A stretch of 64,000 nucleotides of DNA from Rhodovulum sp. ES.010. GTDB taxonomy: Bacteria > Pseudomonadota > Alphaproteobacteria > Rhodobacterales > Rhodobacteraceae. The stretch is from contig NZ_FSRS01000001.1 of assembly GCF_900142935.1 (NCBI RefSeq), forward strand, positions 1,684,001 through 1,748,000, in the 5' to 3' direction. Below are positions 3,547 to 56,825 of the stretch, one piece after another. The notes under the pieces were generated by a model. That model saw only the letters and a program-made list of their open reading frames with translations. It was not told the origin of the DNA and ran no database searches. The position numbers were made by a program, and so were the translations under genes. Position 1 is the first letter of the stretch, and each line of letters starts with the position of its first letter.

Positions 3547-4820
3547 TCGTCGGTCTCCTCGTTCTGGGCCGCGCCGTCGTCGCGGGTCATGTTGGGCGCG
3601 GGGTTCAGCCGGTCGCCGCCGGGGATCGGGCCGCGGCCGTCCACCTCACGCGCCTCGTCGGGCGTCAGGAAAGGCCCGCCGACGGCTTTCTGCAGGGCCT
3701 CGTAGCGCTCCTTCGTCGTGGCCTGCATCAGCGCATCGTAATCGTGATGCAGGAACAGGCCCCGCCGGCGCTCGCCCGCCGTGAGGACCCCCAGCGTCAG
3801 CTGCGCGCCGACGAACTGCCCCCAGTGCAGCAGGCAGTCCGAGCGGTAGTCGATCGCCTGCTGCTCGCCGTTGGCCTTCACGCCGTGCTCCAGCATCTGC
3901 AGCTTGGACGGCGGCACCCGGTAGATCGCCGCGATCTGCTCGCGGTCGAACTTCCGGCTGTCCAGCAGCTCCCTGTCTGCCGGCGATATGTCCAGCGACT
4001 TGATGTCGTCGCCCGCACCGATAATCGGGACACCGTTGGCCTCGGGGTCCTCCAGCGCGTTGCGCACGCGCCGCGCGTTGCGCGTCCAGGCCTCGTCGTC
4101 CTCGTAGACATCCTCCATCTTCATGACGGCGCGCAACTGCACGCCCGATACCGCCCGCGCCGCCGCTTCCTGGCCGGCCAGCGCCAGCCCGACCGACTCG
4201 GCGGCCACCTGCAGCGGGCTGCGGCCGGTCCAGCCGTCCTCGGCCATGTAGCGCAGGTGCACCATGATGCGGCCGGGCGCCCGGCGCGCCACGCCGGCCC
4301 CGTCCTCGAAATCGTAGAACCGCTCGCGGCCATATGCCGTCTCGGCACAGCGGTCGGGGCGGATCACGTCCAGCAGCACGATCTCGCCGGCCCCGTCCCG
4401 CGGGGCGTAGGCATAGGCCCGCCCGCGCAGGCAGAACGCGTAGGCCAGCGCGAATCGGGCCACGTTGGCGGGCACGCCGGGCGAGGCCTCGACGTTCAGC
4501 AGGTAGTTCGCCGGATGCTCCCGCACCGGCTCGATCCGGCCGCCCGGCAGCCGCTGCGACACGGACAGAGGCAGTTTCGACAGGTCGCCCGCGATCACGT
4601 TGCAGCAGGCAAAGACGGTGGCGTGCCGCTGGGCGATCACCGGCGTGACCACCGGCAGCGACCGCACGCGCGACTGCGGACCGCCCCAGAAATCGCGGAA
4701 CCAGGGCGCCGGGTCCACGGTCCCCGAGGCCTCTGCCGCCGTCATCGGCGGCTCGACCCGCACCGGCGCCGCGGCCGGGCGGCCGCCGCGGCCCATCAGT
4801 CTGCCGATCATGCCCGTCAT
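3543..4820 (-). CDS. Phage portal protein, HK97 family
   Basis: A 425-residue protein forming the dodecameric DNA channel at the capsid vertex. Typical portal features are ATVFACCNVIAGDLSKLPLSV near residue 70, VMVHLRYMAEDGWTGRSPLQVAAE in the wing, and the crown/stem segment FDREQIAAIYRVPPSKL near residues 290-310. The C-terminus ends in a PGGDRLNPAPNM pattern common in these proteins. It overlaps terminase upstream and protease downstream by 4 bases each (ATGA), so the head genes form one coupled operon. Confidence 0.93.
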   Translation of the reverse strand: MTGMIGRLMGRGGRPAAAPVRVEPPMTAAEASGTVDPAPWFRDFWGGPQSRVRSLPVVTPVIAQRHATVFACCNVIAGDLSKLPLSVSQRLPGGRIEPVREHPANYLLNVEASPGVPANVARFALAYAFCLRGRAYAYAPRDGAGEIVLLDVIRPDRCAETAYGRERFYDFEDGAGVARRAPGRIMVHLRYMAEDGWTGRSPLQVAAESVGLALAGQEAAARAVSGVQLRAVMKMEDVYEDDEAWTRNARRVRNALEDPEANGVPIIGAGDDIKSLDISPADRELLDSRKFDREQIAAIYRVPPSKLQMLEHGVKANGEQQAIDYRSDCLLHWGQFVGAQLTLGVLTAGERRRGLFLHHDYDALMQATTKERYEALQKAVGGPFLTPDEAREVDGRGPIPGGDRLNPAPNMTRDDGAAQNEETDE

Positions 4821-6475
4821 ACCGTCGCCACGTCCCTTGCCTTGCGCCTGCCCTCGGCCGCCACCGCCCGGCCCACCGCCATGATCGCCGCGACCGCGGG
4901 GTCGATCCGCCCGGTCGACCGCCGCTTGTTCGGCTTGATGTTCTCGGCCGGGTCCTCGTCCCGGAACACGTTGCCCACCGCCCAGGCCAGCACAGGGTTG
5001 CCGCCATGGCGCAGCCGGCCGTTCATGACCCGCCGCTCGAACTCCTTCATCGGCGCCGACATCGAGGCATAGCCCTGGCCGTGCTCGACCAGCGGAATCT
5101 TCCGCGCGACCAGCGCCTTGACGATCGAGCGCATGCCCCAGCGGTCATAGGCCAGCTCGCGCAGGTCGAAATACTCGGCGATCCAGGCGATCCGCTCGAC
5201 GATGGCGTCCTCGTCGATCGACCCGCCCCGGTGCACCTCCAGCCAGCCGCCGTCGCGCCAGGCGACGAACTCGCGGTTCTCGGTCTGGGCGCGCGCGATG
5301 AACCCTTTCGGCCCCTCCGGCAGGAAGGTGTAGCAGACCAGGTGGATCAGACCGTCCACCGGCACCGCCACCACGATCGCCGTGGTGTCTGTCGTGTTCG
5401 ACAGATCCAGCGCCGCCCAGGCGGGGCGTCCCCTGAGCATGGCCAGATCGAAGGGCTGACCGCCCCTGTCCCAGACGTCCCGCGCGATCCAGCCCTGGGC
5501 GCCCTCGGTCCACAGGTTCAGGTGCAGCCGCCGGAAGTTCGGCATCTTGCCCTGGATCGCCTCGGCTTGGGCGTAGAGCTGCGCGAAATCCTCCTCCCGG
5601 AACGCCACCCCGAAATTCGGATTCGCCATGCGCCACGCCACCGGGTCGGCCGGGTCGCAATCGGCCGGCGGCTCGGCGATGAAGGCGAAGAAGCTGTCAT
5701 CGGCGACCTCGCCCTTGAGCACCTTCTCGCCGTAGCGCCTCAGTTCGCCGCAGACGCTCGCGATGTCGGCGCCGGCGGTGGTGATCGCCCAGTCGATCGG
5801 CTGCGACCGCGCGAGCATCGAGTTGACGATGACCTCGGCGAGCTCCCGGTCGGTCCAGCGGTGCACCTCGTCGCGCGCGGCGAAATGCGGGTTGATCCCG
5901 TCGGCCGACTGGCCGTCGCGGCTCAGCGCCTTGATGATCCCGTTGGTCGGCGGCGTCTCGATCGAGCCGCGCCAGACGTTCATCAGCTGCATCAGCGCCG
6001 GGCTCGCCCGGACCATCCGCTTCAGGTCCTCGAACAGCAGGCCCGCCTGGTCGCGGGTCACAGCCGCGCAGTAGCATTCCGGGGTCTGCTCCCCGTCGAA
6101 GAGCTGCGTGTAGAGCGCGGGCACCGCGGTGTCCGTGGTCTTGCCGTTCTTCTTGGCCACCTGGTGATAGGTGGACCGGAACCGGCGCCGCCCGTCCGCC
6201 TGCTTCCAGCCGAAGACCGATCCGTGGCGGAACGCCTGCCAGGGCTCCAGCGCCAGCGGCGCGCCCGCCATCGGCCCCTTTGTGTGGCGGATCATCTTCG
6301 CGAAGTTCAGCACCCGGTTCGCCGCCTCGACGTCGAACCACAGGCCCCGGTCGCCGCCCTCCTCGAGGTCGCGCAGGTGCCGCTCGCAGGCCAGCCGCAC
6401 CAGCTCGGCCGCGACGATGCGGCCCTCCACCACGTCGATCGCATAGCGCGAAACCGGGTGGTCAAGCGGATCCAT
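4817..6475 (-). CDS. terL: Terminase large subunit
   Basis: A 552-residue packaging motor with N-terminal ATPase and C-terminal nuclease. VAKKNGKTTD near residue 107 is the phage-type Walker A, and HFAARDEVHRW is the Walker B with its catalytic acid. The nuclease half begins around WAALDLSNTTDTTAIV, with Asp residues where RNase H-fold terminases bind metal. Length and motifs fit the Terminase_1 (HK97/P27-partner) group. It overlaps the small subunit gene by 14 bases and the portal gene by 4. Confidence 0.94.
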   Translation of the reverse strand: MDPLDHPVSRYAIDVVEGRIVAAELVRLACERHLRDLEEGGDRGLWFDVEAANRVLNFAKMIRHTKGPMAGAPLALEPWQAFRHGSVFGWKQADGRRRFRSTYHQVAKKNGKTTDTAVPALYTQLFDGEQTPECYCAAVTRDQAGLLFEDLKRMVRASPALMQLMNVWRGSIETPPTNGIIKALSRDGQSADGINPHFAARDEVHRWTDRELAEVIVNSMLARSQPIDWAITTAGADIASVCGELRRYGEKVLKGEVADDSFFAFIAEPPADCDPADPVAWRMANPNFGVAFREEDFAQLYAQAEAIQGKMPNFRRLHLNLWTEGAQGWIARDVWDRGGQPFDLAMLRGRPAWAALDLSNTTDTTAIVVAVPVDGLIHLVCYTFLPEGPKGFIARAQTENREFVAWRDGGWLEVHRGGSIDEDAIVERIAWIAEYFDLRELAYDRWGMRSIVKALVARKIPLVEHGQGYASMSAPMKEFERRVMNGRLRHGGNPVLAWAVGNVFRDEDPAENIKPNKRRSTGRIDPAVAAIMAVGRAVAAEGRRKARDVATV

Positions 6476-6899
6476 TGAGCGACTTCTCCAGCTCGGCCAG
6501 CAGGTCGAACTGGCCGTTGCTGGCCATCCGTTTCTCGTCCACGGGCGAGAACCCGAAAAGCGCCGACAGCCGCGCCATGGTCGCGATCGCTTCCTGCCGC
6601 TGGCCCCAGGCGGCGCGCTTCTTCTCCTGCTTGCCGTTGCGGGTCTTCGTCTCGAAATACTTGCCGAACGCGGCCAGGTCCCCGGTGGCCTCGACGAAGG
6701 CGGCGACGGCTTCGCAATAGGCCGCGAAGAGGTCTTCGAACTGGGGCTCCAGCCGGTCCTTCGCGATCAGGATCGGCGCCAGCCGATCCCAGGCCTTGCG
6801 ACCCTCGTCCGACAGGAAGTCCGGCGCGTCCGGCACCGGCCGGCGCACGTCGCCCTTCATGGGCACCACGTTGTCCAGCCTCGGTTTCGCGCCTCGCAT
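6462..6899 (-). CDS. terS: Terminase small subunit, P27 family
   Basis: A 145-residue DNA-recognition subunit. P27-type features are the early PDAPDFLSDEGRKAWDRLAP segment, the EDLFAAYCEAVA helix, and a C-terminal RLSALFGFSPVDEKRM stretch. I chose ATG at 6899, preceded by AGAGAGGACAGG; the frame stays open further upstream but without phage-like sequence. The 122 bases to the HNH gene hold no gene and are the natural place for a packaging site. The gene overlaps terL. Confidence 0.88.
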   Translation of the reverse strand: MRGAKPRLDNVVPMKGDVRRPVPDAPDFLSDEGRKAWDRLAPILIAKDRLEPQFEDLFAAYCEAVAAFVEATGDLAAFGKYFETKTRNGKQEKKRAAWGQRQEAIATMARLSALFGFSPVDEKRMASNGQFDLLAELEKSLNGSA

Positions 6900-7550: not shown

Positions 7551-8267
7551 TCAGAGATGGATCACCGCGATGTCAGGCCGCCGCCTGGGCCCGGCCATCC
7601 GGTCCAGCGCCTCCGCAAGCGCCGAGCGCAGCAGGCCCCGCACGCGCGCGTCCGCAGCCCAGCCATGCCGCCGCAGAACATCGCTGAGCGTCGCATCCTC
7701 CAGGCAGACCATGTCGACCAGCGCCCGATCCGGGATCGCCACCCGCGCGCCCCGCTTCGACGGCCGGACCTTGCGCAGCGACAGCGCCTCGCCCTCGCCG
7801 ATCCGCGCGCGCAGCCGGGCGATCGCATCCCGGTCGCGCAGCACCGCGTCGATGAACGACCCGCCACCGCCGGACGAGGCCCGCAACGCCTCGACCGAGG
7901 AACAGCGCAGGCCGGCAGCCGCGTGCCGTTCGACCAGCGTGCGGTACCACCGGCCCATCGCAACCTGGCCCGGCGTGAACGGCGCCGCCGCCTTGCGCCG
8001 CGCCGCCTGGGCGGCCATGACGTCGAAGGCATCGGCGACCTGCAGCGCGGCGCGGCCCATGTGGCCCGCGGGCTTCTGCTCCCAGTCGTTCTCGCCGTTG
8101 GGATACAGCGCCATCGGCCGGAACGCCCGCACCGGGCCGCGGGCGGGCGCCTCGGGGATCTCCGGGCCGCAGTCGGGCGGGACATGCCCGCGCGCACGCA
8201 CCTCCGCGATGCGCGCCTCCTCGGCGGCCCTGCGCGCCAGCGCCTCGAACTCCTGCAGCCTTCTCAT
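7551..8267 (-). CDS. Phage protein of unknown function, 238 residues
   Basis: I do not recognise the family. The N-terminus is a charged helix (MRRLQEFEALARRAAEEARIAEV). The middle carries a Trp/Tyr-rich stretch (MGRWYRTLVERHAAAG). The C-terminal half looks like a helix-turn-helix (ALVDMVCLEDATLSDVLRRHGW), so DNA binding is possible. The start overlaps the stop of the upstream gene (ATGA). Position between the putative origin and the HNH/terminase genes suggests a late regulator or packaging-linked role; this is inference from location only. Confidence 0.65.
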   Translation of the reverse strand: MRRLQEFEALARRAAEEARIAEVRARGHVPPDCGPEIPEAPARGPVRAFRPMALYPNGENDWEQKPAGHMGRAALQVADAFDVMAAQAARRKAAAPFTPGQVAMGRWYRTLVERHAAAGLRCSSVEALRASSGGGGSFIDAVLRDRDAIARLRARIGEGEALSLRKVRPSKRGARVAIPDRALVDMVCLEDATLSDVLRRHGWAADARVRGLLRSALAEALDRMAGPRRRPDIAVIHL

Positions 8268-8842
8268 GCCGTGCGCTCCCCTGCCTGGACGATGTCGAGC
8301 ACGCGCGCGCGGGTGGCGAGGTAGCCGTCCAGCCAGTCGCGATCGGACGGCGCCACCGCGCCGTCCTCGGCCAGCTCGGCGATCCGCCGCCGCCGCCGGG
8401 CGTTCTCTTCCGCCTCGCGGCGGATGGTGTGCCAGCCATAGTCGCCGATCGGCGGCTGGCCGAACTTCTTGAGGTAGAGGAACAGCTCGACGGCATAGCC
8501 GCCCTCGGCCGCCGCGCGCCCGGCGGCCGATTGCAGCATGCTGCGCACCAGGCGGCTTTCCGAGGCGGGCGGCGGCTCGATCCGGCGCGCCCAGTTGCAG
8601 ATCGAGACCTCGGCGGGCCAGACGTTCCGCGCCTTGCCCTCGGCGTGGCGCTCGACCACCTCGGCCAACGCCGCCAGGCCGTCCTCGGTCATGTAGGCCA
8701 GCCGCGCCGCCAGCCGGTCGAGCGCACCCTCGTGCTCGGCCAGCGTGACCCGCGCCCGCCGGACCATGCCCCGCGCCTCCAGCGGCTCGACCAGCCACGC
8801 CCGTACCCGGGCCTTGCCCTCTCTCAGCGCCTCGCCTTCCAT
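8264..8842 (-). CDS. Phage protein of unknown function, 192 residues
   Basis: A mostly helical, charged protein with no membrane segment or signal peptide. Residues 20-60 resemble a coiled region (RARVTLAEHEGALDRLAARL). A conserved-looking core, LFLYLKKFGQPPIGDYGWH, follows around residues 120-140. It lies immediately downstream of the repeat-rich region 8,879-9,013 and is coupled to the next gene by an ATGA overlap. A role in replication is possible from position but nothing in the sequence proves it. Confidence 0.65.
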   Translation of the reverse strand: MEGEALREGKARVRAWLVEPLEARGMVRRARVTLAEHEGALDRLAARLAYMTEDGLAALAEVVERHAEGKARNVWPAEVSICNWARRIEPPPASESRLVRSMLQSAAGRAAAEGGYAVELFLYLKKFGQPPIGDYGWHTIRREAEENARRRRRIAELAEDGAVAPSDRDWLDGYLATRARVLDIVQAGERTA

Positions 8843-8878: not shown

Positions 8879-9013
8879 TTATCCACAGGCCCCACCGGGC
8901 CGAACGGCGATGTTCCTGTCTATTTCCCTGTCCCTGTCCCTGTCGTGGCGGACAGTCTCAGACTGTCCGAAGACTGTCCCGGACTGTCCGGCGGACAGTT
9001 CCGGACAGTCCGC
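8879..9013. other. Putative phage replication origin: DnaA box plus iteron-like repeats
   Basis: TTATCCACA at 8879-8887 is a perfect consensus DnaA box. CCTGTC-type direct repeats follow at about 8915-8946. From 8949 to 9010 there are six copies of GGACAGTC or close variants in both orientations. The first two form a perfect 9-base hairpin stem around TCA. It is the only gene-free stretch of this size in the leftward replication block and lies directly downstream of the DUF1376-like replication gene. It may instead bind a phage regulator or act as a terminator. Confidence 0.5.
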
Positions 9014-9646
9014 CTAGGTCTCGGCGGGGCCTCTCCTCCGGTGCAGGGAAAATGCGTGGTTCGACCAGGCCGCGATCGCGCGCTCGTGCCACTCGGCGCT
9101 GCGATAGGCGCAGCCCTGGTCGGTCAGCCAGTCATCCATCCACAGGATCGCCGCGTCGTTCTTGGCCAGCTCGGGATGGAAGCCCGCGACCCGCTCGCGC
9201 AGCCGGCGCAGGCGCTTGGCGGCGTTCGCGGCCTCGTTCTTGGCGCGGTTGTCCTCGCGCCGCGACACGGCATCGAGCACCATCTTCAGCACCCGCGGGT
9301 GGAACAGGCGCACCTCGTCGCCGCAGCGACAGCGCTGCCAGCGATGCAGCGGGCCGAATGCCCCGTCGCACATCCGCCTGAGCCGCGCGAGGTCCACCAT
9401 CAACAGCTTGGCCAGCTGCTCGATATCGTCGGGCAGCGTGCCCACGGGCTTCTGGTCCTGGCTGATGCAGATCAGGTCGAAATAGAGCGCCCGCGCCTCC
9501 TCGGTGCCCTTGAGCCGCATCTCCGAGTTCAGCCATTCGCGATGGAACCAGGCGATGAAGTAATGCCCGTGCAGATCGTCGCCGACCGCCAGCGGATAGT
9601 CCGGCAGGTCGTCGACCTCGACGGGCTGGAGCAGCGCGGCGGTCAT
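9014..9646 (-). CDS. DUF1376-like phage replication protein
   Basis: A 210-residue protein whose first 110 residues match the DUF1376 pattern of phage replication initiator-like proteins: YFIAWFHREWLNSEMRLKG, then EEARALYFDLICISQDQ, PVGTLPDD and FGPLHRW. A basic helical region (NAAKRLRRLRERVAG) follows. The likely role is replication initiation or helicase loading. The gene ends at the edge of the iteron-like array, as initiator genes often do, and overlaps the upstream gene by 4 bases. Confidence 0.75.
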   Translation of the reverse strand: MTAALLQPVEVDDLPDYPLAVGDDLHGHYFIAWFHREWLNSEMRLKGTEEARALYFDLICISQDQKPVGTLPDDIEQLAKLLMVDLARLRRMCDGAFGPLHRWQRCRCGDEVRLFHPRVLKMVLDAVSRREDNRAKNEAANAAKRLRRLRERVAGFHPELAKNDAAILWMDDWLTDQGCAYRSAEWHERAIAAWSNHAFSLHRRRGPAET

Positions 9647-9999
9647 GCCGAACCCTCCCCGTCATCCAGGACGGCGTCGATCAGCCCGTCGGACGCCACC
9701 GCGTCCAGCAGGCGCGCGGACAGCTCCGACACGGACAGGCCCCGCGCCTCGGCCGCGCGCTCAAGCTTGCGCCGGGTCGCCACCGCAACCCGCACACGCA
9801 GCCAGCATTCACCCGGCCGGGGCCGCGGGGCGGTGTTGAACCGCGGGATCGCATGGCCACCGCGACGCGCATCCTTGAGGATCTGGTAGATCGCCGAGAC
9901 CGGCGCGTCGAACTCGGCGGCGATCTCGCCGGGCCGCTTGCCGGCCTTGGCGGCGGCGATGGCGGCGTCTCGGAACGGGGCTGCCGGCGGCATCCTCAC
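9643..9999 (-). CDS. Small phage DNA-binding protein (helix-turn-helix plus ribbon-helix-helix-like)
   Basis: A 118-residue protein in two parts. Residues 10-45 form a resolvase-like helix-turn-helix (AAIAAAKAGKRPGEIAAEF, VSAIYQILKDAR). Residues 65-105 (LRVRVAVATRRKLERAAEARG, SVSELSARLLDAV) resemble an Arc/CopG ribbon-helix-helix unit. A regulatory or replication-accessory DNA-binding role is likely. Overlaps neighbours on both sides by 4 bases. Confidence 0.65.
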   Translation of the reverse strand: MRMPPAAPFRDAAIAAAKAGKRPGEIAAEFDAPVSAIYQILKDARRGGHAIPRFNTAPRPRPGECWLRVRVAVATRRKLERAAEARGLSVSELSARLLDAVASDGLIDAVLDDGEGSA

Positions 10000-10622
10000 A
10001 CCCCCAGCGCTTCGCGGTAGAGCTGCAGGACAGCCTCTTCCTCGGCGATGTCGTCGCGGTCGCGTTTTCTCAGCGCGATCACCTTGCGCAGCACCTTGGT
10101 GTCATAGCCCCGCGCCTTGGCCTCGGCCATCACCTCCTTCATCTGGTCGGCGATGTCCTTCTTCTCGGCCTCCAGCCGCTCGAAGCGCTCGCAGAAGCTG
10201 CGCAGCTCGTCGGCGGCGACCCGGTAGACGCCCTCGCGCACCTCGGCATCCTCGGCCGTCTCCTTCATCGGCGCCCGCCCGTTCGACGCGGCGGCCCCGA
10301 CCATCGCGCCGATCCCCTCCGCCACGCGGAACGCGCCCGGCAGCTCGTCCACCGCGACCTCGCGCTTTCCGACATGGTTGGCGGCCGTCACCACGCCCTC
10401 GGCCTCCAGCGCCTCCATCAGCGCCGAGGCGCGAGCATACCCGATGCCGAACTGGCGCTGCAGCCCGGTGACCGAGGCCTTGCCGGTCTCGACGACATGG
10501 CGCGCGGCCGAGACCGTAAGCGCGTCCAGGAACCCCGCTGCCGCGCGCTCCAGGTCGCCGCCGGTGAACGCCACGCTCCGCCCGTCGGGACCGGTGATCT
10601 CCATCTGCACGTCCTTGGGCAT
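9996..10622 (-). CDS. FtsK gamma domain fused to a GapR (DUF2312) domain
   Basis: A 208-residue protein. Residues about 33-92 match the winged-helix gamma domain of FtsK DNA translocases (SVTGLQRQFGIGYARASAL, LEAEGVV, KREV), which reads oriented KOPS-type sites. Residues about 135-208 match GapR/DUF2312 (LRSFCERFERLEAEKKDIAD, VMAEAKARGYDTKVLRKVI, EEEAVLQLYREALG), a nucleoid protein that binds overtwisted A/T-rich DNA in Caulobacter. A linker of about 40 residues joins them. No ATPase is present. The start ATG at 10622 has GGGGAGG upstream. The combination suggests site-directed delivery of a topology-sensing domain during phage replication or partitioning; that role is inference. Confidence 0.82.
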   Translation of the reverse strand: MPKDVQMEITGPDGRSVAFTGGDLERAAAGFLDALTVSAARHVVETGKASVTGLQRQFGIGYARASALMEALEAEGVVTAANHVGKREVAVDELPGAFRVAEGIGAMVGAAASNGRAPMKETAEDAEVREGVYRVAADELRSFCERFERLEAEKKDIADQMKEVMAEAKARGYDTKVLRKVIALRKRDRDDIAEEEAVLQLYREALGV

Positions 10623-10638
10623 GTCCTGCCTCCCCATG

Positions 10639-11223
10639 TCACGCCGCCTCCCCGAACTTGCCGGCCTCGTCGCCCCAGACCGCCCAGCCGGGCCGGTCGG
10701 TGCGGCTGAAGAGCTCGATCCGCCGCGCCCCGGGCATAAGCGCCTCGGCCGCCGCGTACGCCTCGTCGGGCTTGCGGGAATGCGCGCGCGCCGCGCCCTC
10801 GATCACCGAGCGGACGCTGCGCGTGGTCCTGGGCGCGCCGCGCACGCCGACCAGGTAGGGCTCGCCCGCATTGCGAAAGATGTAGCCGGTGCCGAAGGCA
10901 AGCTTGCCGGTCGCGGGGTTGCGCTTGGACCAGTGCCCGGCGGCCTTGTACTCGAACGCCCAGGCGTCGAGCACCGCGAAGGCCTCGCGCAGCATCGGGT
11001 TGGTGGCCCAGAGCCACAGCAGGCAGTTCTCGGCCGCCAGCACGCTGACCGGCAGCGCCTCGATCCAGCCGAGCGGCGTGCAGGCGTAGTGCGCCTTCGC
11101 GTTCTTCGCCTCGCCCGCGGCCGACCAGTTGTCGAAGGACCAGGGCGGATCGGCCATGATCAGGTTGAAGCCCCCGGTGGGCCTGAGCGCGATGAACTCC
11201 TGCACCAGCCCGCGCCCCGCCAT
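10639..11223 (-). CDS. MT-A70 family adenine methyltransferase
   Basis: A 194-residue enzyme with the catalytic DPPW motif at about residue 21 (LIMADPPWSF), preceded by a short strand. LLWLWATNPML and a C-terminal IELFSRTDRPGWAVWGDE segment are typical of phage MT-A70 proteins. It would place N6-methyladenine in phage DNA, perhaps against host restriction. Start ATG overlaps the upstream stop (TGATG). No cognate restriction gene is nearby. Confidence 0.88.
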   Translation of the reverse strand: MAGRGLVQEFIALRPTGGFNLIMADPPWSFDNWSAAGEAKNAKAHYACTPLGWIEALPVSVLAAENCLLWLWATNPMLREAFAVLDAWAFEYKAAGHWSKRNPATGKLAFGTGYIFRNAGEPYLVGVRGAPRTTRSVRSVIEGAARAHSRKPDEAYAAAEALMPGARRIELFSRTDRPGWAVWGDEAGKFGEAA

Positions 11224-11519
11224 CACGCCGCCCCCGCCGCGAATTCCGGCCGCTCCGCGACGCGCGCCGCGCCGATCCCGGCCTGCCACAGCGCCTGCAA
11301 CGCCTCGCCGTCGATCCCGGCCAGCGCGCAGACCATGTGGAAATCGCGGCTCCCGATCCAGGCCGCCGCCTGCGCCCGGGCGACGGGGCCGAGGCCGGCG
11401 CCGCGGCCATGGGCGTTGCACCACCCCTCCCACAGCACCGCGCACCATAGCGCCCGGCAGGGCTCGACCCTGGCCGGCGGCGCCAGCTCGGCCGACAGCT
11501 CCGGCAGGCTCATCTGCAT
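11223..11519 (-). CDS. Small phage protein of unknown function
   Basis: A 98-residue Ala/Trp-rich protein (CRALWCAVLWEGWCNAHGRG, AAAWIGSRDFHMVCALAGID). Similar small proteins occur beside MT-A70 genes in alphaproteobacterial prophages as I remember them, but no function can be named. The helix near residues 60-85 might bind DNA. ATG at 11519 has GGAGGACAGGGC upstream and is preferred over the ATG two codons later. Confidence 0.6.
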   Translation of the reverse strand: MQMSLPELSAELAPPARVEPCRALWCAVLWEGWCNAHGRGAGLGPVARAQAAAWIGSRDFHMVCALAGIDGEALQALWQAGIGAARVAERPEFAAGAA

Positions 11520-13520: not shown

Positions 13521-14174
13521 ATGGCGAAAGACCCTTTCATAGAGGGCCTGCGGCGCGTTTTCGACGCGGACCCGGACCTGAAGCCCGCGACCGTCTCGGC
13601 CCGCGCGGGCCTGGACAAGTCGACCATTCGCAAGATGCTCGACCGCCCCGAGCATTCGCCGCGCCACGCGACGGCCGAGCGGATCGCCAACGCCCTCGGC
13701 ATGGCGGTGGCCGATATCACTGCCCTCGGCGGCGGGTTCGCGTCCGCGCCGACCGAAACGCACTCGCAGGGCTTTGGCGAGCCCGAAGTCGCAACGCTGA
13801 CCGCTATTGGCCAGCATTCAGCGCGACTGAACGAGGTGGCCCGCGCCTTGGCGCCCGACCTGCGCACCCACGCCTTCTACGTCGTTGGCCGCCACCTGCC
13901 CGAGCTGCTGCTGAAAACCGGCGACGTGCTGGTCTGTGACCTGAACCCGCCGCCCGACCCCGCGCCGGGCACCATCGTCCTGGTCAACGTGGCCGACCCC
14001 GACACCGGCAGCGCCCAGACCCTCGTCCGCCGCCTCTACCCGCCCTTCCTGGCGGGCGACCCCTCGAACGGCGACACCCCCGCCCGCTTCGACCCCGAAA
14101 CCATGGCGATCATGGGCGTCGTCGTGGCGTCCTTCCGGCTGAACACCCGACAGCAGGCACCGGCCGAGGCCTGA
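13521..14174 (+). CDS. CI-type phage repressor with S24-like C-terminus lacking the catalytic serine
   Basis: A 217-residue protein. Residues 1-65 contain a Cro/CI-type helix-turn-helix (ATVSARAGLDKSTIRKMLDR, TAERIANALGMAVADI). The C-terminal part has the LexA/CI fold (THAFYVVGRHLPELLL, KTGDVLVCDL, GTIVLVNVAD). Where S24 peptidases carry Ser-Met there is His-Leu, so self-cleavage in an SOS response seems unlikely. I chose ATG 13521 (GGGG upstream) because the longer frame from 13464 begins with TTG inside an operator. The likely targets are the palindromes at 13,448-13,483 and 14,976-15,038. Confidence 0.8.
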   Translation: MAKDPFIEGLRRVFDADPDLKPATVSARAGLDKSTIRKMLDRPEHSPRHATAERIANALGMAVADITALGGGFASAPTETHSQGFGEPEVATLTAIGQHSARLNEVARALAPDLRTHAFYVVGRHLPELLLKTGDVLVCDLNPPPDPAPGTIVLVNVADPDTGSAQTLVRRLYPPFLAGDPSNGDTPARFDPETMAIMGVVVASFRLNTRQQAPAEA

Positions 14175-16466: not shown

Positions 16467-18089
16467 ATGGACGGCAGCGGGCTCGACCTCGGCCACATGC
16501 AGACCCCGCCCGACAGCAGCGCGCCGCTGATCGTCGACAGCTTCGCCGGCGGCGGCGCGGCCAGCACCGGGATCGAGGCGGCGCTGGGGCGCGGGCCCGA
16601 CATCGCGATCAACCACGACGCCGCGGCGCTGGCGATGCACCGGGCGAACCACCCCGCCACCCTGCACCTGAATTCCAACGTCTGGAATGTCGACCCGGCC
16701 GAGCTTTGCCGCGGCCGCCGCGTCGCGCTGGCCTGGTTCAGCCCCGACTGCAAGCACCACTCCAAGGCCAAGGGCGGCAAGCCGGTCAAGCGGAACATCC
16801 GCGACCTCGCCTGGGTGGTGGTGCTCTGGGCGCGCCGCGCCCGGCCCGAGGTGATCCTGCTCGAGAATGTCGAGGAATTCCGCGATTGGGGCCCGCTGAC
16901 CCCCGACAGCCGCCCCTGCCCCGAGCGGCGCGGCCAGACCTTCCGCCACTGGGTCGGACAGCTGAAGCGGCTGGGCTACCGGGTCGAGTGGCGCGAGCTG
17001 CGCGCCTGCGACTACGGCGCGCCGACGATCCGCAAGCGGCTGTTCCTGGTGGCCCGCTGCGACGGCCGCCCCATCGTCTGGCCCGAGCCGACCCACGGCG
17101 CCCCCGGCAGCCCGCAGGTGATCGCGGGCACCCGCAAGCCGTGGCGCACGGCGGCCGAGATCATCGACTGGTCGCTGCCCTGCCCCAGCATCTTCGACAC
17201 GTCCGACGAGATCATGGCGAAGCACGGGTTGCGCGCCGTCCGCCCGCTGAAGGAGGCGACCCTGCGCCGGATCGCCCGCGGCGTGATGCGCTACGTGATC
17301 GAGGCGCAGGAACCGTTCCTGGTGACTTACGCCCAGCAAGGGGGCGCGGTGCGGTCAGGCTTCGACCCGCTGCACACGATCTGCGCCAGCATGAAGGACT
17401 ACAACGGCATCGTCGTGCCGACGCTGGTGCAGACCGGCTATGGCGAACGCCCCGGCCAGGCCCCGCGCGTGCCCGGCCTCGACAAGCCGCTCGGCACCGT
17501 CGTCGCGGCCGGGGGCAAGCATGCGCTGGTGGCGGCCTTCCTCGCCCAGCACAACGCCGGCGCCCGGATGGAGCGGAACGCGGGCCGCCCGGCCGTCGCG
17601 CCGCTCTCGACGCTGACCACCCGCGGCACCCAGCAGCAGGTGGTGGCCGCGCACCTGATGAACCTGCACGGCACCACCCGCCGCGACCAGGACCTGCTCA
17701 CGCCCCACCCGACGATCTGCGCCGGCGGCGGCCACGGCGCGCTGGTCGCCGCGTTCCTGCAGAAATACTACGGCCAGGGGCTGGGGCAGGATCCGCGCGG
17801 CCCACTGCACACGCTCGGCACCCGCGACACCTTCGGCCTGGTCACGGTCGAGATCGACGGCGCGACCTACGCGATCGCCGATATCGGCATGCGCATGCTG
17901 ACCCCGCGCGAGATGTTCCGCGCCCAGGGCTTCCCCGAAAGCTACGAGATCGACACCGGCCCCGACGGCCGCCGCTTCACCAAGACCGAACAGACCCGCA
18001 TGTGCGGCAACTCGGTCTGCCCGCCGCTGGCCGAGGCGCTGGCGCGGGCGAACTGCGCCCACATCGCGAAAGAGGAGATCGCCGCGTGA
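16467..18089 (+). CDS. C5-cytosine DNA methyltransferase
   Basis: A 540-residue phage methylase. Motif I is DSFAGGGAASTGIE at about residue 24. Motif IV is FSPDCKHHSKAKGG near residue 89, with the catalytic Cys in PDC instead of the usual PC. The ENV motif is LLENVEEF near residue 133, and RKRLFLVARC is the motif VIII region. A long variable region with several ALVAAF-type repeats follows before the C-terminal motifs (EMFRAQGFPESYEI, MCGNSVCPPLAEAL). It would methylate phage DNA at an unknown target. No restriction partner is seen. Confidence 0.92.
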   Translation: MDGSGLDLGHMQTPPDSSAPLIVDSFAGGGAASTGIEAALGRGPDIAINHDAAALAMHRANHPATLHLNSNVWNVDPAELCRGRRVALAWFSPDCKHHSKAKGGKPVKRNIRDLAWVVVLWARRARPEVILLENVEEFRDWGPLTPDSRPCPERRGQTFRHWVGQLKRLGYRVEWRELRACDYGAPTIRKRLFLVARCDGRPIVWPEPTHGAPGSPQVIAGTRKPWRTAAEIIDWSLPCPSIFDTSDEIMAKHGLRAVRPLKEATLRRIARGVMRYVIEAQEPFLVTYAQQGGAVRSGFDPLHTICASMKDYNGIVVPTLVQTGYGERPGQAPRVPGLDKPLGTVVAAGGKHALVAAFLAQHNAGARMERNAGRPAVAPLSTLTTRGTQQQVVAAHLMNLHGTTRRDQDLLTPHPTICAGGGHGALVAAFLQKYYGQGLGQDPRGPLHTLGTRDTFGLVTVEIDGATYAIADIGMRMLTPREMFRAQGFPESYEIDTGPDGRRFTKTEQTRMCGNSVCPPLAEALARANCAHIAKEEIAA

Positions 18090-18502
18090 CCACCCACGCC
18101 CTCGATATCCTCACCTCCGAGCTGCTGACCACCGACGAGGCGCTGGCCTGGCTGGCCGCGCGCGGCGTGCGCACCTCGCGCGGCGGGCTTGACAGGGCCT
18201 ATGCGGCGGGCAGGCTGACGCGGGTGCGGGTCTCGGGCCGGGTGCGCATCCTCTACCGGCCGGCGGACCTGGCCGCCGCCTTCTTCCTGGGCGAGGAAAG
18301 GACCGAGCCATGCTCCGAAAGTTCCAGCGCAACGGCATCTGGTACCTGCGCGGCACCGTCGCGGGACAGCGCGTTTACGAAAGCACTCGCATTGGCGACG
18401 AGAAAGCCGCCGAAACCCTCCGCATCCGGCGCGAGGCCGAAATCCTCGAACGTGTCACGCTTGGCCGACGCGCGACGGTCACCTTCGCCGAGGCCGCGCT
18501 GA
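18086..18502 (+). CDS. Excisionase-like DNA-binding protein overlapping the integrase
   Basis: A 138-codon frame starting with GTG that overlaps the methylase stop (GTGA). Residues 15-65 look like an excisionase/MerR-type winged helix (LLTTDEALAWLAARGVRTSR, GGLDRAYAAGRLTRVRVSGR, ILYRPADL). No stop occurs before the integrase start, so the last 64 codons lie in a second frame of the integrase gene and are Ser/Pro/Arg-rich. Only the first 75 residues are convincing as a folded domain. Position just before the integrase fits a directionality factor. Confidence 0.6.
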   Translation: MTTHALDILTSELLTTDEALAWLAARGVRTSRGGLDRAYAAGRLTRVRVSGRVRILYRPADLAAAFFLGEERTEPCSESSSATASGTCAAPSRDSAFTKALALATRKPPKPSASGARPKSSNVSRLADARRSPSPRPR

Positions 18503-19356
18503 CCTACCTGGAATCGGGCGGCGAGGGCCGGTTCCTCGCCCCGATCCTCGCCCATTTCGGCCCGCGCTTCCGCCTGGTTGACCTCGACAACGAGGCGCTG
18601 AACGCCGCCGCCCGAGCGCTCTACCCGACGGCCGCGCCCTCGACGATAAACCGCCAGCTCGTCACCCCCGTCTCGGCCGTCTACCAGATGGCCGCGGACG
18701 ACGGGCTGGTGCCGCCGCGCCGGTTCCGCCGGCGCAAGGTCGACGACGCGCGCCTGCGCTGGCTGACGCCGGACGAGGCCGAGCGGCTGATCGCGGCGGC
18801 CGACGCGCGCACGGCGGTGCAGATCGAGTTCCTGCTGGGCACCGGCTGCCGGGTGGGCGAGATGATCGCGCTGCAGCGCGCCGATCTGCACCTCGACACG
18901 GGCGAGGCGTGGATCGGCCGGGCCAAGAACGGCCGGCCGCGCATGGTGCGCCTGCCGACCCGCACCCGCCGCCTGCTCGCCGCCACCGGCCTGCCCGAGG
19001 CCGGCGCCGTGTTCCGCACGCCGAAGGGCATGCCCTACGTCCAGCGCGCCAACATGGGCGGACAGATCCAGGCCGCCTTCAACGCGGCCCGCGACAAGGC
19101 CAAGCTCGAGGCCAAGGGCCCGCGCCGCGTCACCCCCCACACCCTGCGCCACACCTGGGCGACCTGGTACTACGCCCAGACCCGCGATTTCGGCGGGCTG
19201 ATGGACCTGGGCGGCTGGGAAAAGGCCGACATGGCCAACCGCTACCGCAAGATTGCGCCGGCCTGGCTGGCGGACGAGCTGCGGGCGAAGGGGTGGGTGT
19301 TCGATAGCGACCATAACCAGCCGGAGGACACGACGAATGCCAAGCGGACGGGATGA
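18310..19356 (+). CDS. int: Tyrosine-type phage integrase
   Basis: A 348-residue site-specific recombinase. The N-terminal 150 residues form the arm- and core-binding domain (LRKFQRNGIWYLRGTV, then the Gln-Met helix of SAVYQMAADDGLV). Catalytic residues are visible: Arg in GTGCRVGEMIAL, His and Arg in TPHTLRHTWATW, Trp in LGGW, and the nucleophile Tyr in ANRYRKIAP. It reads toward the prophage end and the junction in tRNA-Ser(GCU) at 21,990, so the attachment site is separated from int by about 2.6 kb of cargo. Confidence 0.94.
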   Translation: MLRKFQRNGIWYLRGTVAGQRVYESTRIGDEKAAETLRIRREAEILERVTLGRRATVTFAEAALTYLESGGEGRFLAPILAHFGPRFRLVDLDNEALNAAARALYPTAAPSTINRQLVTPVSAVYQMAADDGLVPPRRFRRRKVDDARLRWLTPDEAERLIAAADARTAVQIEFLLGTGCRVGEMIALQRADLHLDTGEAWIGRAKNGRPRMVRLPTRTRRLLAATGLPEAGAVFRTPKGMPYVQRANMGGQIQAAFNAARDKAKLEAKGPRRVTPHTLRHTWATWYYAQTRDFGGLMDLGGWEKADMANRYRKIAPAWLADELRAKGWVFDSDHNQPEDTTNAKRTG

Positions 19357-19909: not shown

Positions 19910-20734
19910 ATGGGCGAGAATTCGAAGATCGAATGGACGACGCACACCTTCAACCCCTGGTGGGGCTGCGTGAAGGTGTCCGAGGCCTGCAAGCATTGCT
20001 ACGCCGAGGCCTGGGCCAAACGGGTGGGCCAGAAGGTCTGGGGCCCGACGACGGATCGCCGCTTCTTCGGCGATGCGCACTGGAAACAGCCGGAGACATG
20101 GAACCGCCGACTCGAAGGTACCGGCCAGCGTGCGCGCGTATTCTGCGCGTCGATGGCCGATGTGTTCGAGGACCGGCGCGACCTTGACCCGCACCGCGTG
20201 CGGCTGTGGTCGCTGATCGAGGCGACCCCGAACCTCGACTGGCTGCTGCTGACGAAGCGTCCGGATGTGGCGGCGCGCCTGAACCCATGGGGAATGACCT
20301 GGCCCGCCAACGTCTGGCTGGGCACCACGGTCGAGAACCAGCAGCGCGCCGACGAGAACCTGCCCCACCTGGTCGGGATCGCTGCGCGCGTCCGGTTCAT
20401 CTCGGCCGAGCCGCTGCTGGGCCCACTCGACCTGTCGACCTATCTCGACCGACTGGACTGGGTCATCACCGGCGGCGAAAGCGGGCCCAAGGCCCGACCG
20501 GCCAGCCCGTCCTGGTTCCGCCAGCTGCACCTCCAATGCATGGCGCATGAGGTGCCGTTCCATTTCAAGCAATGGGGGGACTGGGCGCCGGGCGACGGGA
20601 TCAACCTGCCGCGCCGACGCACACAGCAGGCCCACGACGGCACCCTGATGGTACGGCTCGGCAAGAAAGCCGCCGGCCGCGAGCTGGACGGTGCGACGCA
20701 CGACGGTTTGCCCGAATCGTCTCGCGCGATCTAG
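19910..20734 (+). CDS. DUF5131 / phage Gp37-Gp68 family protein with three-Cys motif
   Basis: A 274-residue protein. The family signature is near the N-terminus: IEWTTHTFNPWWGC followed by EACKHCYAE, giving Cys residues in a C-x7-C-x2-C spacing. The core has LLLTKRP, ANVWLGTTVEN, RFISAEPLLGP and WVITGGESGP, and HFKQWGDW lies near the end; all are typical of PF07505. The Cys cluster resembles radical SAM proteins, but biochemical function is not established to my knowledge. GGAGG precedes ATG 19910. It is paired with tcmP 41 bases downstream, a pairing I know from other genomes. Confidence 0.9.
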   Translation: MGENSKIEWTTHTFNPWWGCVKVSEACKHCYAEAWAKRVGQKVWGPTTDRRFFGDAHWKQPETWNRRLEGTGQRARVFCASMADVFEDRRDLDPHRVRLWSLIEATPNLDWLLLTKRPDVAARLNPWGMTWPANVWLGTTVENQQRADENLPHLVGIAARVRFISAEPLLGPLDLSTYLDRLDWVITGGESGPKARPASPSWFRQLHLQCMAHEVPFHFKQWGDWAPGDGINLPRRRTQQAHDGTLMVRLGKKAAGRELDGATHDGLPESSRAI

Positions 20735-21989: not shown

Positions 21990-22031
21990 CCCTTAGCAGG
22001 GGAGCGCCTTCGACCACTCGGCCACGTCTCC
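21990..22031 (-). other. Prophage attachment junction in a truncated tRNA-Ser(GCU) gene
   Basis: On the minus strand from 22031, GGAGACG acceptor strand, GTGGCCGAGTGGTCGAAGGC D-arm and CTCCCCTGCTAAGGG anticodon arm match bacterial tRNA-Ser(GCU), anticodon at 21995-21997. After GGG the sequence continues TTTCTGGCAG; it lacks the long variable arm, a T-loop and a matching CGTCTCC acceptor strand. The gene therefore breaks at the 3' side of the anticodon stem. The rest of the tRNA, or a phage-carried replacement, must lie at the other prophage end outside the window. Confidence 0.75.
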
Positions 22032-22038
22032 GCTGGCC

Positions 22039-22067
22039 TGTCTATGGGTCCCAGCCTGCGAAAACAA
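22039..22067 (-). promoter_or_regulatory. Possible promoter of the tRNA-Ser fragment
   Basis: On the minus strand TTGTTT (22062-22067) and TAGACA (22039-22044) are 17 bases apart and end 7 bases before the tRNA 5' end. The -10 match is partial. Its presence indicates that the tRNA 5' half is host-derived. Confidence 0.4.
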
Positions 22068-55635: not shown

Positions 55636-55902
55636 ATGAAGCGAACGAGATACAGCGAAGAGCAGATTATCGGCATCCTGGCCGAGCATGAGGCCGGGGC
55701 GAAGTGTGCCGATCTGTGCCGCAAGCACGGCATGTCGGAGGGGACGTTCTACAACTGGAAAGCCAAATACGGCGGCATGACGGTGTCAGAGGCCAAACGG
55801 CTGAAGGCGCTCGAGGACGAGAACGCCAAGTTGAAGAAGCTGCTGGCGGAGCAGATGCTGGATCTGGCCGCGATGCGCGAGCTGGTTTCAAAAAAGTGGT
55901 GA
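55636..55902 (+). CDS. IS3-family transposase OrfA
   Basis: An 88-residue DNA-binding subunit. Helix-turn-helix [17 protein letters not shown] with [20 protein letters not shown], then a leucine zipper ([20 protein letters not shown]). A slippery AAAAAAG at 55890-55896 lies just before the stop, allowing -1 frameshifting into OrfB to make OrfAB. Confidence 0.93.
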
Positions 55903-56825
55903 CGCCCGTCGTGAAGCGCGAGGCGGTCGCGCATCTGAAGGCCCGGTTCGGGCTGTCGGAACGACGGGCGTGCCAGATTGCCGGCGCGGATCGGAAGACG
56001 ATCCGCTACCGGTCGCAACGCGCACCCGACACGGAACTGCGCGGCCGATTGCGGGAGCTTGCCAACGAGCGTCGGCGGTTCGGCTACCGGCGGCTCTTCG
56101 TCCTGCTCCGGCGGGAGGGCGAGCCCTCGGGGATCAACCGTATCTACCGGCTTTACCGCGAGGAAGGGCTGACCGTCCGCAAGCGGCGCGCGCGGCGCAA
56201 GGCCATCGGCACCCGCGCCCCGATCCTGGTCGAGGCGCGCGCAAATGCCCGTTGGTCACTGGATTTCGTCCATGACCAGTTCGCGTGCGGGCGGCGGTTC
56301 CGGGTGCTGAACATCGTCGATGACGTCACGCGCGAATGCCTCGCCGCGATCCCGGACACGTCGATCTCCGGCCGGCGCGTCGCGCGGGAGCTGACGGCGC
56401 TGATCGAACGTCGCGGCAAGCCGGGAATGATCGTGTCGGACAACGGGACGGAACTGACCTCGAACGCGATCCTGAAGTGGTGCGCCGAGAACCGGATCGA
56501 ATGGCACTACATCGCGCCGGGCAAGCCGATGCAGAATGGCTTTGTCGAGAGCTTCAACGGCCGGATGCGGGACGAGTTCTTGAACGAGACGCTGTTTCGT
56601 AACCTCGCCCATGCCCGCGACCTGATCGCCGCCTGGGTCGCCGACTACAACACCGAGCGCCCCCATTCGGCCTTGGGCTATCAGACCCCGGCTGACTACG
56701 CGCAGACCCTGACCACCGCAATCGCCCGACCCGCTGCGCGAGATGAGAGCTCCGCGCGTCGGGCGATTGCTCAACCCGCGCCATTTGGCGTAAACACCAA
56801 CCGGGCTCCGGTCGCGGCTGGATGA
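55899..56825 (+). CDS. IS3-family transposase OrfB (DDE catalytic part)
   Basis: A 308-residue rve-type integrase domain. Catalytic acids are in [21 protein letters not shown] and [30 protein letters not shown] is the typical end of IS3 OrfB. Probably expressed as OrfAB by -1 frameshift; GTG at 55899 could give OrfB alone. Its stop (56823-56825) overlaps an ATG at 56822 that is in frame with the downstream DUF4389 gene. Confidence 0.93.

What the first reader, a model, noticed from the sequence alone, without database searches (positions are those of the whole stretch)
9996..10622. Fusion of an FtsK gamma domain with GapR
Seen: one 208-residue protein carries an FtsK-gamma winged helix (SVTGLQRQFGIGYARA) and a full GapR/DUF2312 domain (LEAEKKDIADQMKEVMAEAK) with no ATPase. 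Known: FtsK gamma binds oriented KOPS sites; GapR binds overtwisted DNA and stimulates type II topoisomerases in Caulobacter. Inference: the phage may use KOPS-like reading to place a supercoil-sensing protein on DNA during replication or segregation, or may compete with host FtsK or GapR.
Basis: partly seen in the sequence, partly recalled or inferred. Interest (0 to 1): 0.72.

Follow-up and report, generated by a model that had tools for sequence, protein, structure and literature searches.

The report
Phage KOPS-reader fused to GapR clamp
A prophage gene joins the DNA-reading tip of the bacterial chromosome pump FtsK to GapR, a protein ring that grips over-wound DNA; many related phages carry such fusions, and other phages have put the same FtsK tip on other DNA-binding proteins, which looks like a recurrent and undescribed phage invention.

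Summary
The fusion is real: one intact 208-codon gene on the MINUS strand (9996-10622) carries a full FtsK-gamma winged helix and a full GapR domain, both far above Pfam cut-offs, without an ATPase. It lies in a 38.5-kb tailed prophage beside replication-like genes and a putative iteron origin. Of 120 listed homologues (window's own included; 632 found) 119 carry both domains. Four KOPS-reading positions (E. coli N1296, R1300, E1303, E1306) are all kept in 80 of 120 rows, but this copy has A at the first two; R1300A is KOPS-defective in E. coli. GapR contact residues are intact. gamma is optional: one synteny slot holds GapR alone, with gamma, or with gamma plus a third domain. Host-like gamma is also fused to RdgC and NA37/YejK in Pseudomonas/Vibrio phages and has changed partner at one locus. 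KOPS strand bias is as strong in GapR-only phages, so it gives no proof of reading. Best reading: an early phage DNA-topology clamp with a DNA-targeting module, probably weakened or re-specified in this copy.

The parts
9996..10622 (-). gamma-GapR fusion gene, 208 aa (213 aa if started at 10637)
10350..10526 (-). FtsK-gamma winged-helix domain (PF09397); A at positions equivalent to E. coli N1296 and R1300
10002..10217 (-). GapR DNA-binding domain (PF10073); the DNA-contact positions checked are all basic
10539..10607 (-). short N-terminal module 'z' (beta-hairpin plus helix) that recurs in related proteins
10639..11226 (-). MT-A70 family DNA methyltransferase gene just upstream (ORF open to 11448); cluster cl23
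9643..9993 (-). small gene just downstream (cluster cl78); only sub-threshold HTH matches
9014..9646 (-). replication-protein-like gene (phrog_22470 E 0.001); matches cluster cl6 of related phages (57% identity to L093)
8947..9012 (.). iteron array (three 23-bp copies, GGACAGTC/GACTGTCC), putative prophage replication origin
8264..8842 (-). gene of cluster cl4, next in the conserved order
6462..6869 (-). terminase small subunit
4817..6475 (-). terminase large subunit
13521..14174 (+). repressor-like gene, divergent from the early operon (weak matches, phrog_4 E 0.001)
18310..19356 (+). tyrosine integrase of the prophage
21990..22046 (.). 57-bp direct repeat = right prophage end (tRNA-Ser reading is mine); other copy at contig position 1667517, outside the window

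Best explanation
It is an early, replication-module DNA-topology protein of a temperate phage. The C-terminal GapR part forms a tetrameric ring that clamps over-twisted DNA and favours type II topoisomerase action in front of phage replication forks (inferred from Caulobacter GapR and from the intact contact residues). The N-terminal FtsK-gamma part, a host-like module that phages add to or drop from such proteins, gives the ring a sequence-reading hand; four gamma domains per GapR tetramer could supply the three that one KOPS site takes. In most of the family it probably reads the host's oriented KOPS; in this copy, where two reading residues have become alanine, reading is probably weak or re-specified, and gamma may act mainly as extra DNA-binding. 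Shown: domains, conservation, modularity, neighbours, gamma fusions on other DNA-binding proteins. Inferred: tetramer, KOPS binding by the family, topoisomerase stimulation, benefit to the phage.
For: Both domains above cut-off. GapR contact residues in 132 gamma-fused proteins (window included): K34 129, K42 127, K49 130, K56 124, K or R at 59 in 132, R65 131, K66 128; window K,K,K,K,R,R,K (roles of these residues in PMC7373187, passages). KOPS positions in 120 rows (window plus 119 relatives, one partial): N1296 111, R1300 89, E1303 109, E1306 120; all four in 80. Slots: between an O-like replication initiator and a Holliday-junction-resolvase-like gene (representatives of each cluster), or, as in the window, two genes from a replication-like gene whose 3' side bears an iteron array in 16 of 17 loci. 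In the first slot GapR occurs as R, g-R and X-g-R. gamma is under purifying selection (pN/pS 0.14-0.35 in six pairs of GapR fusions). gamma also sits on RdgC and NA37/YejK; GapR stimulates and YejK inhibits gyrase and topo IV (PMC10053502, passages). GapR is a tetramer (PMC7498317, passages); three gamma bind one KOPS (PMC5052618, passages).
Against: This copy lacks N1296 and R1300. KOPS polarity is not fusion-specific: 0.78 in 24 fusion loci (first of 42 patterns), 0.75 in 62 GapR-only viral loci (fourth of 42); KOPS enrichment within 1.5 kb of the gene is 2.1-fold but a control pattern does as well (rank 2 of 42). I have no binding, oligomer or topology data for any fused protein. The NCBIfam GapR equivalog model is not met (84.6 of 140 bits). 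Fused GapR might serve another GapR-like role such as that of T4 DsbA. The benefit to the phage is inferred from neighbours only.
Confidence: 0.5

Rival explanations
1. Host takeover by mimicry: gamma occupies KOPS or XerD and so blocks or redirects host FtsK/Xer work late in the cell cycle; GapR only anchors it on DNA.
For: gamma resembles the FtsK of the matching host group in the 13 fusions compared other than the window; the XerD-contact residue R1289 is kept in 106 of 120 rows, window included; E. coli R1300A and E1303A lose KOPS recognition but still support Xer recombination (PMC2680272).
Against: XerD residues E183/E184 that pair with R1289 (PMC5052618, section read) are Pro-Pro in the best XerD match of this host (by my count; the match is below the family cut-off); R1289 lies on the surface also used for DNA, so its conservation has another cause; the genes I looked at sit beside replication or recombination genes.
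Confidence: 0.15
2. Transcription or nucleoid factor: like T4 DsbA, a GapR-family protein, it binds phage DNA and helps RNA polymerase at some promoters, with gamma as one of several DNA-binding add-ons.
For: T4 DsbA is reported to be GapR-related (PMC7824862, passage); several Rhodobacter phage GapR genes are annotated DsbA-like; N-terminal modules vary while GapR stays.
Against: The gene lies among replication and recombination genes rather than late genes; no promoter link was tested.
Confidence: 0.13
3. Packaging or DNA-orientation factor: gamma marks or orients phage DNA for the terminase, as proposed for the published terminase-gamma fusion.
For: Samaravirus small terminases carry an N-terminal gamma (PMC8190038, passages); the window gene lies in the same transcription direction as the terminase genes.
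Against: The window phage has a small terminase of 135 aa of its own, and five genes lie between it and the fusion gene in the gene list; GapR is not known as a packaging protein (recalled).
Confidence: 0.07
4. In this copy gamma is a decaying passenger: the gene works as phage GapR and gamma has lost its use.
For: N1296 and R1300 both replaced; only 3 of 120 rows, window included, have A at both. GapR-only genes fill the first slot in relatives.
Against: The rest of gamma is intact and scores 70 bits, with E1303, E1306, R1289, G1318 and R1320 kept.
Confidence: 0.15

Closest known systems
Caulobacter GapR and stand-alone phage GapR/DUF2312 proteins
   Same: Same C-terminal domain and DNA-contact residues; one synteny slot of related phages holds GapR alone or fused.
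   Different: An N-terminal FtsK-gamma domain and a short z module are added; the NCBIfam GapR equivalog cut-off is not reached.
FtsK gamma domain (PF09397) of the host FtsK
   Same: Same winged helix; R1289, E1303, E1306 kept.
   Different: No membrane part and no ATPase; N1296 and R1300 replaced by A in this copy.
Samaravirus small terminase with N-terminal FtsK_gamma (PMC8190038, passages)
   Same: Motorless phage DNA-binding protein with a host-like gamma.
   Different: Partner is a small terminase; different phages and hosts; packaging role proposed.
RdgC-gamma and NA37/YejK-gamma phage proteins (found here)
   Same: gamma joined by a linker to a DNA-binding protein in phage genomes, in the annotated cases near ssb, NinB or nuclease genes.
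   Different: gamma is C-terminal there and of gammaproteobacterial type.
PHROG 4212 (unknown function)
   Same: A 353-position family with the layout X-gamma-GapR; the window protein matches it at E 4.3e-48.
   Different: The window protein lacks the X domain.

Membership tests
GapR DNA-binding family (PF10073) | Profile match above the curated cut-off | tested here: met
   108.4 bits against 22.6
GapR DNA-binding family (PF10073) | Basic DNA-contact residues K34, K42, K49, K56, K59, K66 and structural R65, E28 | tested here: met
   K,K,K,K,R,K and R, E in the window
GapR DNA-binding family (PF10073) | Tetramer that encircles over-twisted DNA and stimulates type II topoisomerases | not testable with these tools
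   needs protein; known for Caulobacter GapR (PMC7498317; PMC10053502)
NCBIfam equivalog NF052541 (nucleoid-associated protein GapR) | Score at or above 140 bits | tested here: not met
   84.6 bits; so not filed as the cellular GapR equivalog
FtsK gamma domain (PF09397) | Profile match above the curated cut-off | tested here: met
   70.0 bits against 30.6
FtsK gamma domain (PF09397) | KOPS-recognition residues N1296, R1300, E1303, E1306 (R1300, E1303, E1306 from PMC2680272; N1296 recalled) | tested here: not met
   window A, A, E, E; family 111, 89, 109, 120 of 120 rows
FtsK translocase family | FtsK/SpoIIIE motor domain | tested here: not met
   no motor domain among Pfam matches of the 213-aa protein
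XerD activator (FtsK-gamma or XafT-like; XafT recalled) | XerD-contact surface matched by the host XerD | tested here: inconclusive
   R1289 kept, but host XerD has Pro-Pro at E183/E184

The most novel reading that the evidence does not exclude
Phages have repeatedly built a class of motorless, KOPS-guided DNA clamps: they capture the gamma domain of their own host's FtsK and hang it on ring-shaped or topoisomerase-controlling DNA proteins (GapR, RdgC, NA37/YejK, small terminase), so that an otherwise sequence-blind clamp is loaded at, and oriented by, the host's polarised KOPS code along phage or host DNA. Having gamma in the operon may matter more than which protein carries it, since gamma has changed partner between NA37 and RdgC at one locus.
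Probability: 0.35. Interest if true: 0.82.

Novelty: new variant of a known kind. Interest (0 to 1): 0.62.

Why it matters
If right, KOPS, known as signposts for the FtsK pump, are also read by phage proteins without a motor, and supercoil-sensing clamps can be given an address. That would make testable how phages manage DNA topology and orientation during replication, and why temperate phages carry strand-biased KOPS. It also gives a natural set of swaps (gamma on, gamma off, gamma on another partner) for separating the reading, clamping and pumping roles of FtsK.

Tried and rejected
KOPS test. GGGNAGGG is one-stranded in 17 fusion records (126 of 139 sites on the major strand; reversed control pattern 65 of 85; my sums; two of the held fusion loci of that collection, L086 and L097, and the genome loci were not given to the call). 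Rejected as evidence for the fusion: GapR-only viral loci are nearly as polar (0.75 against 0.78, no duplicates removed), and the orientation relative to the gene is mixed (48 and 53 sites). Prophage bias towards the host's KOPS orientation is known (PMC5993296, passage).

KOPS clustering at the gene: 2.1-fold within 1.5 kb in 22 fusion loci but rank 2 of 42 control patterns, rank 7 at 2.5 kb and 25 at 4 kb; in 34 loci without gamma 1.3-fold, rank 11 at 1.5 kb (loci that I judged near-duplicates were left out by name in the script). Rejected.

RdgC phages: 95 of 99 KOPS on the major strand in 9 records with gamma (8 RdgC-gamma, 1 NA37-gamma), 59 of 74 in 9 without a complete gamma (my sums; 18 of the records that I held). 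Suggestive only: the gamma records are close kin.

GapR tree: 102 rows, 76 columns, mostly unresolved; gamma needs 24 changes by parsimony but only 3 are forced by well-supported branches. One row labelled as chromosomal without gamma (L012) lies in a short Rhodovulum contig and may be prophage. I make no claim from this tree.

Xer activation: weakened by the host XerD sequence. PADLOC gave nothing for the window protein. The gene caller misplaced genes around the window gene (opposite-strand ORFs); window neighbours were taken and matched to the clusters. The GapR rows for the L193 pairs are spurious and were ignored.

Full report
OBSERVATION. The 208-codon gene is at 9996-10622 on the minus strand. 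It carries PF09397 (FtsK_gamma, 70.0 bits, cut-off 30.6) and PF10073 (GapR, 108.4 bits, cut-off 22.6) in one open frame and no motor domain. PDB sequences match the halves separately. A model from 72 homologues has mean pLDDT 90.0, pTM 0.54: hairpin and helix (residues 6-28), winged-helix segment (about 34-90), a linking helix (96-112), and the long GapR helix with two shorter ones.

SETTING. The window lies in a 3.73-Mb contig. A 57-bp direct repeat, which reads like part of a tRNA-Ser gene (my reading), bounds a 38,530-bp prophage that ends at window 22046. It has integrase, terminases, major head protein and a DNA methyltransferase at 16467-18089, and an MT-A70 methyltransferase directly upstream of the fusion gene. 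The host's own FtsK (901-aa frame) and own GapR (101-aa frame) are elsewhere.

FAMILY. 632 database proteins match at E 1e-5 or better; of the 120 listed (one is the window's own), 119 carry both domains. In 120 genomes of the family, a gamma match besides the FtsK one occurs in five, one of them below cut-off; I searched GapR in these five only, and it lies beside gamma in three (own, G102, G104). G121 and a second place in G102 have gamma without GapR. In the genus the fusion is in 2 of 16 genomes, with two copies in one. This scatter is what prophage carriage predicts. In the phage collection 363 of 50,697 records match the window protein at 1e-3, but only 2 over at least 80% of it; 195 match a gamma query (12 of them Ruegeria or Rhodobacter phages) and 155 a GapR query. 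So among named phages GapR is common and the fusion uncommon; most fusions seen here are in prophages and uncultivated contigs.

KEY RESIDUES. I set E. coli numbering by R1300, E1303 and E1306, named in PMC2680272 (one section read), on the alignment; N1296 as a KOPS residue is recalled. Of 120 rows (window, 119 relatives, one partial): N1296 111, R1300 89, E1303 109, E1306 120, R1289 106; all four KOPS positions in 80, the three named in the paper in 82. The host FtsK is canonical. The window has A, A, E, E; two other rows share A, A. R1300A and E1303A are KOPS-defective but keep residual recognition and Xer support in E. coli. Of two Rhodovulum relatives, P0029 has S, G and P0019 keeps N, R. 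GapR contact residues are intact in the window and in nearly all of 132 fused proteins.

MODULES. Profiles made here sort 165 database proteins into g-R 80, z-g-R 29, X-R 27, X-g-R 12, g-X-R 8, R 4, g-z-R 3, R-R 1, z-R 1; the last domain is GapR in all (X is a domain related to phage N15 gp42; z a module of about 25 residues). These counts come from two searches aimed at such proteins, so they are not natural frequencies. Of 56 viral or phage loci with a called gene, 29 have GapR alone and 19 have gamma (L098 and L165 are the same sequence). A Rhodobacter phage protein has two gamma matches before GapR and a tail after it. One slot, O-like replication initiator - one to three small genes - [GapR] - Holliday-junction-resolvase-like gene, holds R (L143, L150, L105, L107), g-R (L005, L092, L095) and X-g-R (L094, L096, L007) (functions from one representative per cluster). 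The window belongs to a second slot: its order MT-A70 (cl23), fusion, cl78, cl6, cl4 is that of L089.

ORIGIN. Directly 3' of cl6, 16 of 17 loci (window included; L085-L087 are near-copies) have a 6-mer repeated 4-8 times in 150 bp, reached by at most 2 of 300 shuffles; L088 is the exception. The repeat differs between phages, as iterons matched to their own initiator would.

OTHER CARRIERS OF GAMMA. Of eight phage regions fetched from a gamma query, one is a long gene annotated ftsK and was not scanned; of the seven scanned, 5 have RdgC plus gamma, both above cut-off (Vibrio K478a, K279, D96a; Pseudomonas PA8, Skulduggery), and phi297 and Vibrio 121E34-1 have gamma and no other Pfam match. 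Of 7 further proteins, 3 have NA37/YejK plus gamma (P0172, L205, L210), 3 RdgC plus gamma and 1 gamma only. A search with the PA8 gamma listed 120 of 1039 proteins: mostly FtsK pieces with the motor domain, 9 RdgC-gamma, 1 NA37-gamma, 1 gamma alone. In 33 viral loci found with PA8 RdgC-gamma, gamma is in the RdgC frame in 11; L205 and L210 have it in the next gene, NA37; one locus holds a gamma fragment only. L193 (RdgC-gamma) and L200 (RdgC, then NA37 ending in the last residues of gamma) are 97.7% identical over 2151 nt that reach into the end of RdgC and 95.5% over 337 nt from the tail of gamma onward, so gamma has changed partner, or been lost from one, at one locus. gamma of five GapR fusions that I picked is nearest to the alphaproteobacterial host FtsK (54-66%), gamma of eight RdgC/NA37 fusions to P. 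aeruginosa or E. coli FtsK (52-89%); the window's is equally far from all (46-48%). These look like separate, host-matched captures. RdgC forms DNA-encircling rings (PMC11077077, passages); YejK inhibits gyrase and topo IV (PMC10053502, passages) and has been suggested as a GapR-like marker of catenanes (PMC8934667, passages); the terminase case is published (PMC8190038, passages). That small terminases form rings is recalled.

KOPS IN GENOMES. See Tried and rejected: bias is strong but not fusion-specific. In the window prophage all six GGGNAGGG sites are on the minus strand, as are most in its flanks (3 plus, 12 minus on the right; 1 and 4 on the left).

MECHANISM. GapR is a tetramer (PMC7498317, passages), so a fused tetramer would carry four gamma domains; three gamma read one KOPS (PMC5052618, passages). 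A single ring could dock on one KOPS and then clamp neighbouring DNA. For the window copy the docking step is doubtful.

IN PRINT. Full-text searches listed no paper describing a gamma-GapR, gamma-RdgC or gamma-NA37 fusion: GapR, phage, FtsK gamma (20 of 76 listed, none with all three); DUF2312 or FtsK (10 of 1,259 listed, none of these with DUF2312); FtsK gamma domain with prophage (3 papers); DUF2312/UPF0335/GapR family names (all 8 listed); GapR, FtsK, phage (2 papers, passages seen); RdgC with FtsK gamma names (10 of 20 listed, none of these with RdgC). Only open-licence papers are held. A 2025 paper that reports GapR in a phage genome for the first time (PMC12185513, passages) is at odds with the 155 records and with PMC7824862 (passage).

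Noticed in passing
window 8947-9012; also L006, L085-L087, L089, L090, L093, L102, L109, L114, L121, L122, L131, L137, L157: Iteron arrays directly 3' of a replication-like gene (cl6), sequence differing between phages: putative phage replication origins.
   Followed up: partly
L193, L200, L205, L206, L210: One Pseudomonas-phage-type locus in several states: RdgC-gamma; RdgC then NA37-gamma; RdgC then NA37 with a remnant of gamma; RdgC then NA37 without gamma.
   Followed up: partly
L166:5611-6936 (Rhodobacter phage RcMamaDuck): A 441-aa protein with two gamma matches, GapR and a C-terminal extension.
   Followed up: no
P0066, P0084, P0098, P0103, L103, L108, L112: An unnamed ~95-residue phage domain (X), related to phage N15 gp42, found before or after gamma or without it, upstream of GapR.
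   Followed up: partly
window prophage, contig 1667517-1706046: All six KOPS of the prophage are on one strand and in its right-hand part; none in the first 23 kb, which includes the head and terminase genes.
   Followed up: no
window 55636-56825: Two adjacent frames that look like an IS3-type transposase pair in the host part (recalled resemblance; frames).
   Followed up: no
window 19910-20734: phrog_2045 gene (unknown function, E 6e-96) between integrase and the right prophage end.
   Followed up: no
P0123: A database protein with two GapR domains in tandem.
   Followed up: no
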